DNA of 64,000 nucleotides, from NCBI RefSeq assembly GCF_001485535.1, contig NZ_BCMZ01000001.1, positions 1,612,001 through 1,676,000 on the forward strand. The letters are read 5' to 3'. This stretch comes from Halobacterium sp. CBA1132. Lineage in GTDB: Archaea; Halobacteriota; Halobacteria; Halobacteriales; Halobacteriaceae. Numbering within the stretch: position 1 is the first letter of the stretch; the number at the start of each line of letters is the position of its first letter. The notes below the pieces were generated by a model, which saw nothing but the letters and a program-made list of their open reading frames with translations, had not been told where the DNA came from and made no database searches. The position numbers were made by a program, and so were the translations under genes. This document shows, one piece after another, positions 15,495-18,190 of this stretch.

Positions 15495-15692
15495 CTTCCG
15501 AATGAGAAAGTCGCGTCGGGGCCGCGAGAAGCGTCGTGGTCGCTCGCCGAAGCCGGCGGCTACTCGGACGTGTGGCGCGTGAAAGAAAATCGAGACCGAT
15601 CCACAGGGGAACGCTACCTGATTCAAAGAGAGAGTTCCCGGCGTTTGGGGCGGGCGTAAATCCGATACTCCTTCACAATCTACGTTCGATGA

Positions 15693-15830
15693 TTATTCTG
15701 GAGTATCTTCTCTGACTTTCTTCTCGCCTTCGAGGAGCAACCCTTTCCAGGTCAACCCACGGTGCTTTTTTAGTTCCTTTAGCCGTTCATACTGTTCCTC
15801 GTCATCGAACTCGATTCGGACTTCGACCAT
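15693..15830 (-). CDS. Small ribbon-helix-helix-like protein divergent from tnpB
   Basis: A 45-residue frame starting MVEVRIEFDDEEQYERLKEL and ending with VREDTPE before a TAA. The layout is that of a MetJ/Arc-type ribbon-helix-helix: a strand with alternating side chains (VEVRIEF), a first helix (EEQYERLKELKKHRG), then a second helix (TWKGLLLEGEKKVRE). I recall similar small frames beside haloarchaeal tnpB genes but no named family. The start codon is 53 bases from that of tnpB, and the two genes face away from each other across one palindrome. A DNA-binding repressor of the element is the simplest reading; this is inference from fold and position. Confidence 0.65.
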   Translation of the reverse strand: MVEVRIEFDDEEQYERLKELKKHRGLTWKGLLLEGEKKVREDTPE

Positions 15831-15848
15831 ATAGTAACACACAAGCCA

Positions 15849-15860
15849 CACATTTATGTG
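15849..15860. promoter_or_regulatory. Shared TATA/operator palindrome of the TnpB element
   Basis: CACAT-TT-ATGTG is an AT-rich palindrome whose centre is about 29 bases before the tnpB ATG and about 25 bases before the divergent small gene. Both distances suit a leaderless TATA box, so one palindrome may serve two promoters and could also be bound by the small ribbon-helix-helix-like protein. Confidence 0.5.
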
Positions 15861-15883
15861 CATTCCGATATAACCAGTAGTCG

Positions 15884-17158
15884 ATGAAGCGGACCAACAC
15901 GTTCGATGTGATTCCCCAGTCCGATGAGGACGAGGAGTTGCTTCGACACCTGTTGGACGCTTCTGCCGCTCTCTGGAACGAAATCAACTACGAACGCCGC
16001 GAACACTACGCTGACCCAGACGGCGACGTGTGGGACATCAGCGAGTACCGTGGGCGCTATGGCGGGACGGTCGGTGCTTCGACAGTTCAACAAATCGAAC
16101 GTAAGAACCGCGAAGCATGGAAGTCGTTCTTCGCGCTCAAGGAGAAGGGCGAAGCTAACGGCAAGCCCGGATTCTGGGGGAACTCGGAAGACGGACGCGA
16201 ACTCCGGGCGTACATTCGCAACACGTCGTACTCCGTCGAATGGGGCGAATACTCCCGGCTCGAAATTCTCGTCGGCCAAGACCTGAAAGACGAGTACGGA
16301 CTTGGATACCACGAACGCCTCCGGCTCGAAGTTCGAGGCGACCCGAACTGGAAGGAGTACGAAAAGCAGGGCCGGTTAGAGTTGTTCTACGACGAGCAAG
16401 CACAAACGTTCAGGGCCTTTCAGCCAGTCACCGTCGATGATTCTCGACTGGCACACCCACTGGCTTCGGAAGAAGCCGCTCTGGACATCGGTGCGAACAA
16501 CCTCGTCGCCTGCACAACCACAACCGGCACCCAACTCTTGTACGAAGGACGCGACCTGTTTGAGCGGTTCCGCGCAACGACGCGAGAAATCGCGCGACTC
16601 CAATCGCTCTTGGAGGAAGGTCGGTACAGTAGTCACCGTATCCGCCGCCTGTACGACCGACGTACCAAGCGGCGTGACCACGCCCAAGATGCGCTCGCCC
16701 GTGACCTCATCGAACGGCTGTACGACGAAGGCGTTTCGACAGTGTACGTCGGGGCGTTGACGGACGTACTTGAAACGCACTGGTCGGTGGAGACGAACGC
16801 GAAAACGCACAACTTCTGGGCGTTCCGAGCGTTCGTGAACCGGCTGGCGTGTACCGCCGAAGAATACGGCATCTCAGTGGAAGTACGGTCTGAGGCGTGG
16901 ACGAGTCAGGAGTGTCCGAACTGTGGTTCGACAGAAGATACGACGCGCCACCGCGACACGCTGACGTGCCCGTGTGGATTCGAGGGTCACGCTGACCTCG
17001 TGGCGTCAGAGACGTTCTTGAGACGGCAGACAACGGTAACACGGTCGATGGCACGACCTGTATGCCTCAAGTGGGACGACCATCACTGGTCAGAGTCGCC
17101 ACGCTCAGTTCCCAACGAGGAACATACGAACCCGCAAGTTGCCTCCGTGGGCCGGTAA
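15884..17158 (+). CDS. tnpB: TnpB, RNA-guided endonuclease of IS1341 type
   Basis: 424 residues, full length for haloarchaeal TnpB. The RuvC-I Asp is D201 in [12 protein letters not shown]. The zinc ribbon is CPNC (344, 347) with CPC (362, 364). The RuvC-III Asp is D371 in [13 protein letters not shown]. At the RuvC-II position the protein reads [13 protein letters not shown] (A291 where I remember an acidic residue in related copies); E297 lies six residues further on. Family members cut DNA guided by an RNA from the element's right end. The N-terminus [20 protein letters not shown] is the family start. Nuclease activity of this copy is uncertain because of the RuvC-II change. Confidence 0.9.
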
Positions 17159-17254
17159 GCGATACCCCCAGCGCGAGGAAACCCCGGCGTCGTCGGGCTT
17201 GCCCGACTGCTTGAGGGACTTCGTCCCTCTCTGTTCACGCCGGGGAGGATGTCA
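17159..17254 (+). ncRNA. Folded right end of the TnpB element, probable omega-RNA (reRNA) scaffold
   Basis: Directly after the tnpB stop, an outer stem (CCCCGGCGT, 17182-17190, with ACGCCGGGG, 17237-17245) encloses two perfect hairpins: GTCGGGC/GCCCGAC (17192-17207) and GAGGGAC/GTCCCTC (17213-17229). This three-way fold followed by GAGGATGTCA is the layout expected for a TnpB guide RNA scaffold. The true 5' end probably lies inside tnpB. The guide would be read from the flank, starting TTTGTGGCGGTCGATG inside korB. The structure is seen; the RNA itself is inferred. Confidence 0.65.
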
Positions 17255-18190
17255 TTTGTGGCGGTCGATGATGTCGTACGAGCGCTCCCAGTCGTAGTCC
17301 TCGTCGAAGTACCGCTCCGCGAGGGGTTCCTCGGGCATGTCGCCGCGCTGCTGCTTCTCCTGCTGGTAGGAGTTGCGCTCCTCGTCCTTGTAGTAGCGAC
17401 CGGTGAGGACGGTGCCCTCGTAGAGGGCGTCCTCGGTCTCGTGCATCAGTTCGGCCGCCTCGCGGCGGTCGGTGATGTCGAAGTCGTAGTCGTCGCTGTC
17501 CTGCACGTCGACGTAGGGGACGTACTGCTTGGCGTCCTTGTTCCACGTCGGGCACTGGGTCAGGAAGTCGACGTGGGAGAAGCCGTCGTGCTCGATGGCT
17601 TCCACGATGATTTCCTGGGCCTGATTCGGGTTCACGGCCGCCGTGCGAGCGACGAAGGACGCACCGGACGTCAGACTCAGGGAGAGCGGACGAATCGGGT
17701 CCTTCGCGGAGCCGTGAGGCTGGGTCTTCGACTTGTGGCCCTTCGGCGACGTCGGCGACGTCTGGCCCTTCGTGAGTCCGAAGACCTCGTTGTTGAACAC
17801 GATGTAGGTCATGTCGTGGTTCTCCCGGGCGGTGTGCATGAAGTGGTTCCCGCCGATGCCGTAGCCGTCGCCGTCGCCGCCCGCCGCCACGACTTCGACG
17901 CCGTCGTTGGCGAGCTTCGCGGCGCGGGCCACGGGGAGCGACCGACCGTGAATCGTGTGGAAGCCGTAGCTCTCGAAGTAGCTGTTGAGCTTCCCGGAGC
18001 AGCCGATACCGGTACACAGCAGGACCTCTTCGGGGTCCTTGCCGAGTTCCGCCATCGCACCCTTCAGCGCCTTCAGGACGCCGAAGTCACCGCAGCCAGG
18101 ACACCACGTCGGCTGCGGCTCGATGCCGGGCGTGAACTCGTCCCGTTCGACCTCCCGATCCTCTCCGATTGCGCTGAACGCTTTACTCAT
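17252..18190 (-). CDS. korB: 2-oxoacid:ferredoxin oxidoreductase, beta subunit
   Basis: 312 residues with the thiamine-diphosphate site of beta subunits: PTWCPGCGDFGVLKAL, CTGIGCSGKLNSYFESYGFH, VVAAGGDGDGYGIGGNHF and NNEVFGLTKGQTSPTSPKGH. Four cysteines (the CPGC pair, C in CTGIGC, and a later one in TQCPTW) suit a 4Fe-4S cluster. With the alpha subunit it oxidises a 2-oxoacid to the acyl-CoA and reduces ferredoxin. I call it the 2-oxoglutarate enzyme by resemblance to haloarchaeal KorB; pyruvate is the alternative. Its ATG lies four bases after the korA stop. The TGA stop is formed at the very edge of the TnpB element. Confidence 0.88.
   Translation of the reverse strand: MSKAFSAIGEDREVERDEFTPGIEPQPTWCPGCGDFGVLKALKGAMAELGKDPEEVLLCTGIGCSGKLNSYFESYGFHTIHGRSLPVARAAKLANDGVEVVAAGGDGDGYGIGGNHFMHTARENHDMTYIVFNNEVFGLTKGQTSPTSPKGHKSKTQPHGSAKDPIRPLSLSLTSGASFVARTAAVNPNQAQEIIVEAIEHDGFSHVDFLTQCPTWNKDAKQYVPYVDVQDSDDYDFDITDRREAAELMHETEDALYEGTVLTGRYYKDEERNSYQQEKQQRGDMPEEPLAERYFDEDYDWERSYDIIDRHK

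What the first reader, a model, noticed from the sequence alone, without database searches (positions are those of the whole stretch)
15693..15884. A ribbon-helix-helix-like gene and tnpB driven from one palindrome
The 45-residue protein has the layout of an Arc/MetJ-type DNA-binding protein and is divergent from tnpB. CACAT-TT-ATGTG sits at TATA distance from both start codons. A dimeric ribbon-helix-helix protein would suit such a palindrome, giving a self-limiting control circuit for an RNA-guided nuclease. I know of no described regulator of this kind in TnpB elements.
Basis: partly seen in the sequence, partly recalled or inferred. Interest (0 to 1): 0.74.

Follow-up and report, generated by a model that had tools for sequence, protein, structure and literature searches.

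The report
CopG-like regulator paired with haloarchaeal TnpB
Many mobile DNA elements of salt-loving archaea that carry the RNA-guided DNA cutter TnpB also carry, back to back with it, a tiny uncharacterised DNA-binding-type protein whose presumed binding sites sit over the start of the cutter's gene, so the element appears to bring its own dimmer switch for its nuclease.

Summary
The small gene is real. It encodes a 45-aa protein under strong purifying selection (pN/pS about 0.075). It occurs in 174 of 394 sampled haloarchaeal genomes and 60 of 86 genera, and lies divergent from a tnpB in 171 of 187 copies with room to judge, usually about 50-58 bp away. AlphaFold gives a confident extended N-terminus plus two helices; 12 of the 13 Foldseek PDB hits are ribbon-helix-helix (RHH) proteins, CopG first. 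Gene and tnpB lie in one 1638-bp element without tnpA; an empty site in relatives shows both ends.

Across relatives, a constant TTTAT core about 27-31 bp before tnpB is flanked by repeated half-sites that change with the RHH subfamily and not with TnpB (partial Mantel 0.73 versus -0.01). In one clade both operator arms change symmetrically as the RHH recognition strand changes.

Best explanation: an element-encoded CopG-like autoregulator, probably a repressor, limiting its own transcription and tnpB's. It serves two very different TnpB clades. I found no published description. Binding and repression are inferred, not shown.

The parts
15618..17255 (+). IS200/IS605-type (IS1341 group) element of 1638 bp carrying RHH gene and tnpB, no tnpA
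   Evidence: Empty site GGAACGCTAC|TTGTGGCGG in Halobacterium relatives L217-L219 (L218 and L220 alike) against the window; sharp loss of similarity at the same ends in many copies
15614..15617 (+). CTAC target sequence left of the element (TAM-like)
   Evidence: Present in the empty site and before nearly all related copies; role as TAM inferred
15618..15692 (+). Left end with imperfect hairpin
   Evidence: Conserved CTGAMTCAAGGAGAGAGTCCCGCC..GGCGGGCGTGAATCCG in relatives
15693..15830 (-). 45-aa ribbon-helix-helix protein gene
15831..15883 (.). 53-bp divergent promoter/operator region
   Evidence: Sequence; co-variation with RHH
15838..15844 (.). Left half-site CACACAA
   Evidence: Dyad axis analysis, clade consensus
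15847..15852 (.). Middle CACACA, possible third half-site (absent in part of the clade)
   Evidence: Gap comparison; inference
15853..15857 (+). TTTAT core, probable TATA box of tnpB and possibly of the RHH gene
   Evidence: Constant in several clades at 27-31 bp before tnpB; haloarchaeal TTWT motif (PMC4983044)
15854..15860 (.). Right half-site TTATGTG
15884..17158 (+). tnpB, 424 aa, RuvC-II glutamate in the alternative position (EAWTSQEC)
   Evidence: definition in PMC10711439
17159..17255 (+). Right end with long hairpin (arms 17182-17190 and 17237-17245), expected 3' part of the guide RNA
   Evidence: no Rfam match, guide RNA inferred

Best explanation
The 45-aa protein is a CopG-like ribbon-helix-helix autoregulator belonging to a two-gene, tnpA-less IS200/IS605-type element. 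It binds as dimers to half-sites about one helical turn apart that flank and overlap the TATA-like core between the two divergent genes, and so blocks transcription initiation of its own gene and of tnpB, holding the RNA-guided nuclease at a low, self-limited level. Shown: the gene, its selection, its predicted fold, its linkage to tnpB, its place inside the mobile element, and co-variation of the intergenic half-sites with the RHH and not with TnpB. Inferred: binding, dimerisation, repression rather than activation, and dosage control.
For: Protein-level conservation across 60 of 86 genera. RHH fold: pLDDT 92 and 12 of 13 PDB fold matches are RHH, CopG TM 0.73. 171 of 187 copies divergent from tnpB, 25 of 28 in eight whole genomes, with two unrelated-looking TnpB groups. 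Gap sequence follows RHH and not TnpB: partial Mantel 0.80 vs -0.10, 0.73 vs -0.01 in group I and 0.40 vs -0.07 in group II. Dyad axis conserved over the core promoter; half-site repeats at helical spacing z=4.5 in group I. Symmetric change of both operator arms with the recognition strand, CTATG..CATAG with NIHIE and CTACG..CGTAG with NHVNIE.
Against: No binding data. The window's own operator is weak (p=0.87). Foldseek E-values are above 1 and Pfam RHH_1 is reached by only 3 of 41 members at 0.036 or worse. Helical-repeat signal in group II is weak (z=1.7). KYINIE proteins (L259, L263) do not fit the simple H/N rule cleanly. The RHH gene's own TATA box is not clear. One tnpB-bearing copy in this genome has a frameshifted RHH (L239), so the regulator is dispensable at least there.
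Confidence: 0.7

Rival explanations
1. The RHH protein represses its own gene but activates tnpB: dimers on the half-sites upstream of the tnpB core recruit or stabilise the initiation complex there.
For: Most half-sites lie upstream of the TTTAT core as seen from tnpB, and between that core and the start codon as seen from the RHH gene.
Against: The right half-site overlaps the core itself. RHH proteins of this size, such as CopG and Arc, are known mainly as repressors (general knowledge).
Confidence: 0.13
2. The RHH protein acts mainly on the element's DNA or on TnpB itself (transposition accessory, nuclease inhibitor, or antitoxin-like partner), and control of transcription is secondary.
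For: It travels inside the element; RHH domains are common in antitoxins (PMC8987985).
Against: Co-variation points to the intergenic DNA. The protein has only a few residues after the second helix, so no toxin-binding tail. The same RHH family accompanies TnpBs of about 30% identity, which argues against a specific protein contact.
Confidence: 0.1
3. The gap follows the RHH only because the two are adjacent and are exchanged together by recombination; the protein regulates something elsewhere.
For: RHH and gap are adjacent; even the tnpB-proximal 20 bp correlate with RHH, though less (0.50).
Against: Symmetric two-arm changes, a constant core with clade-specific flanks and excess repeats at helical spacing in group I are not predicted by linkage alone.
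Confidence: 0.06
4. Chance ORF and chance palindrome.
For: The window's palindrome alone is at chance level.
Against: Purifying selection, wide conservation and tnpB linkage exclude a chance ORF.
Confidence: 0.01

Closest known systems
CopG, 45-residue plasmid repressor (RHH superfamily: Arc, MetJ, CopG)
   Same: Length, predicted fold (TM 0.73), presence on mobile DNA, presumed autoregulation through half-sites over a promoter
   Different: No significant sequence similarity; controls a divergently transcribed RNA-guided nuclease gene and not a replication gene in the same operon; archaeal promoter; several operator types in one family
IS200/IS605 elements with TnpB (IS1341 group; ISDra2, haloarchaeal IS1341-type)
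   Same: TnpB with RuvC and zinc-finger motifs, subterminal hairpins, target sequence on the left only, no terminal inverted repeats
   Different: Carries an RHH gene divergent from tnpB where two-gene relatives carry tnpA
Type II antitoxins with RHH domain (ParD, VapB, CopASO)
   Same: RHH fold, likely autoregulation, found on mobile DNA
   Different: No toxin-binding tail, no toxin gene in operon, divergent order
TldR, TnpB-derived RNA-guided repressors
   Same: TnpB family protein linked to transcription control
   Different: Here TnpB keeps its catalytic motifs (alternative glutamate) and the regulator is a separate protein acting on tnpB

Membership tests
RHH (MetJ/Arc/CopG) superfamily | Strand-helix-helix of about 45 residues | tested here: met
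   AlphaFold2 pLDDT 92, extended N-terminus, helices 11-24 and 28-42; Foldseek top hits RHH
RHH (MetJ/Arc/CopG) superfamily | Significant match to an RHH sequence profile | tested here: inconclusive
   PF01402 in 3 of 41 members, best E 0.036; none for the window protein
RHH (MetJ/Arc/CopG) superfamily | Dimer with intertwined strands inserted in the major groove | not testable with these tools
   Only monomer prediction available
RHH (MetJ/Arc/CopG) superfamily | Recognition-strand residues determine operator sequence | tested here: inconclusive
   H/N in the strand predicts the operator arm in 14 of 15 loci, not corrected for ancestry; no binding data
IS200/IS605, tnpB-only (IS1341) element | TnpB with RuvC and TNB domains | tested here: met
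   PF01385, PF07282, NF040570 over cut-off
IS200/IS605, tnpB-only (IS1341) element | Precise insertion next to a short target, subterminal hairpins, no target duplication | tested here: met
   Empty site and ends
IS200/IS605, tnpB-only (IS1341) element | Guide RNA from the right end | tested here: inconclusive
   Stable fold z -2.5, no Rfam match
Type II toxin-antitoxin | Antitoxin with toxin-binding tail, in operon with a toxin gene | tested here: not met
   No tail; divergent from tnpB
TldR (nuclease-dead TnpB) | Lost RuvC catalytic residues | tested here: not met
   DIG, alternative E and HAD present in the window TnpB and across group I; activity itself not tested

The most novel reading that the evidence does not exclude
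The RHH gene plus its cognate half-sites is an interchangeable control cassette among TnpB elements and defines immunity groups, as phage repressors do: a resident element's RHH would silence incoming elements of the same operator type, and swapping cassettes would let a TnpB element escape. This would be a dedicated copy-number and cross-silencing system for RNA-guided nucleases.
Probability: 0.3. Interest if true: 0.85.

Novelty: new variant of a known kind. Interest (0 to 1): 0.72.

Why it matters
How selfish RNA-guided nucleases keep their activity low enough to be tolerated is open. RNA-level control has been discussed for TnpB, but I found no dedicated protein regulator. A widespread family of roughly 45-aa proteins, annotated only as hypothetical or missed, with predicted operators of several specificities, makes the question testable in haloarchaea that can be manipulated genetically. 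Natural swaps of regulator and operator between close TnpB elements also offer a compact set for reading an RHH recognition code.

Tried and rejected

Per-sequence palindrome tests: mostly not significant one by one; only pooled, positioned tests were informative.

Sequence search of solved structures with the family profile: only chance matches. Pfam, NCBIfam, PHROGs and PADLOC: no usable family for the small protein. Rfam for a guide RNA: nothing.

Nuclease-dead (TldR-like) TnpB: considered because the canonical RuvC-II glutamate position reads Gly in the window; rejected because the alternative glutamate is conserved in group I.

Spread outside haloarchaea: all 35 hits of a phylum-wide sample lie in the window's own order; none in phage records; two viral contigs carry it.

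Literature: searches found no prior report. Subscription papers, supplementary tables and ISfinder were not searchable here.

Full report
OBSERVATION. The window holds a 45-codon ORF at 15693-15830(-) and tnpB at 15884-17158(+), divergent, with 53 bp between start codons. TnpB matches PF01385, PF07282 and NF040570; the small protein has no family match. The named palindrome CACAT-TT-ATGTG is present at 15849-15860. The best inverted repeat with 9-bp arms in this gap scores 6/9, which dinucleotide shuffles reach in 87% of cases, so in this window alone it is not evidence.

THE SMALL GENE IS REAL. A profile of the family finds it in 174 of 394 sampled genomes of the class and 60 of 86 genera; the single window protein finds 160. 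Within one subclade, 49 gene pairs differ at codon positions 1/2/3 by 75/47/421 changes, pN 0.023 and pS 0.313. Plasmid records list it as hypothetical protein or not at all. In a phylum-wide sample of 394 genomes all 35 hits are in the window's own order.

FOLD. AlphaFold2 with 43 family members gives mean pLDDT 92, an extended N-terminus and helices 11-24 and 28-42. Foldseek against the PDB returns 13 matches, 12 of them RHH proteins: CopG (TM 0.73), Arc (0.74), CopASO, PutA and CdbA. E-values are above 1, as can be expected at 45 residues; the agreement among hits is the evidence. Sequence profiles alone are inconclusive.

LINKAGE TO TNPB. Loci were chosen by the small protein and not by tnpB. 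Of 187 distinct copies with room to judge, 171 have a tnpB divergent within 200 bp. The exceptions include truncated or start-less copies and some distant members. In eight whole genomes 25 of 28 copies are adjacent, while those genomes hold 156 TnpB matches, so roughly one in six TnpBs has such a partner. Two TnpB groups of about 30% mutual identity share the arrangement. Group I (window type, about 425 aa) has the RuvC-II glutamate in the alternative position (definition in PMC10711439). A group II sequence (L192) encodes the canonical VIVLEDLS.

THE ELEMENT. Related copies share sequence up to sharp points: a left end beginning after CTAC with a hairpin, and a right end ...GGATGTCAT with a hairpin. 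Halobacterium relatives carry the empty site GGAACGCTAC|TTGTGGCGG next to the same korB gene; the window has 1638 bp (15618-17255) between CTAC and TTGTGG. The RHH gene is therefore inside the mobile element, and there is no tnpA. CTAC as TAM, and a guide starting at 17256, are inferences from known TnpB biology.

WHAT THE GAP SHOWS. The gap is usually 50-58 bp. Consensus by RHH clade: VRIEF CACAc.AA...TTATGTG; TVQIE CATTG...TTTATCAATG; NIHIEVP TCTATG...ACCATAGA; NHVNIEVP TCTACG...TCCGTAGG; NNIHI.VDD TAATAGA...CATAGATATTTATATCT. A TTTAT core roughly 27-33 bp before tnpB recurs; what flanks it is clade-specific. Haloarchaeal TATA motifs are TTWT and 72% of Haloferax protein-coding transcripts are leaderless (PMC4983044), so the core fits a tnpB promoter. 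The RHH gene's own TATA box is less clear.

CO-VARIATION. In group I, gap distance follows RHH distance with TnpB held fixed (partial Mantel 0.80, p 0.001, n=54) and not TnpB distance with RHH held fixed (-0.10). With more loci the values are 0.73 and -0.01 (n=61), and in group II 0.40 and -0.07 (n=48). RHH and TnpB distances are only moderately correlated in group I (0.41-0.45), because RHH types swap between close TnpBs: L048 has a TnpB 87% identical to the window's but an RHH only 57% identical. Half-sites at helical spacing exceed shuffles in group I (z=4.5), weakly in group II (z=1.7). In the -IEVP clade the strand reads NIHIE or NHVNIE and the operator CTATG..CATAG or CTACG..CGTAG. Left and right arms change together in 14 of 15 loci, and H/N in the strand predicts the arm in 14 of 15 (Fisher p 0.0014 each, not corrected for shared ancestry). 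L243 is the telling case: its body resembles the NHVNIE proteins, but its strand is NIHIE and its operator CTATG..CATAG.

MECHANISM. The simplest reading is an autoregulator that occupies half-sites around and over the shared core promoter and lowers transcription both ways. Shown: gene, selection, predicted fold, linkage, element, co-variation. Inferred: binding, dimerisation, repression. Activation of tnpB, a protein-partner or transposition role, and mere linkage are weighed as rivals.

COMPARISON. It works like CopG, a repressor of the same length and predicted fold. Membership of the RHH superfamily is supported by predicted structure, inconclusive by sequence profile, and untested for dimerisation and DNA binding. 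By anatomy it is not a type II antitoxin, and by active-site motifs its TnpB is not a TldR. The passages I read in papers on haloarchaeal TnpB elements (PMC3119063, PMC12558985, PMC8303175) do not mention it, and my searches found no report. The library holds open-licence papers only, so novelty is provisional.

Noticed in passing
17252-17255 (korB 17252-18190, minus strand): The element inserted in the stop codon of a 2-oxoacid:ferredoxin oxidoreductase beta gene; the element's terminal TCAT supplies a new stop (AAG TAG becomes AAA TGA), so the protein end stays ...HK.
   Followed up: yes
L239 (own genome C1 about 208032-209375): A third RHH-tnpB pair in the same genome has a frame-broken RHH gene beside an intact tnpB.
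   Followed up: partly
L237 (G046:C2 about 702900-703160): Two RHH domains in tandem in one reading frame, no tnpB adjacent.
   Followed up: no
L230 (G060:C11 about 154016): RHH-like N-terminus on a longer protein of about 130 aa with no tnpB nearby; possible host recruitment.
   Followed up: no
L214, L215: RHH copies on two viral contigs of IMG/VR; L214 is 86% identical, L215 is a TVQIE type without adjacent tnpB.
   Followed up: no
15884-17158 and group I relatives: Group I haloarchaeal TnpBs combine a DIG RuvC-I motif with the alternative RuvC-II glutamate, and most have CxC in the second half of the zinc finger.
   Followed up: partly
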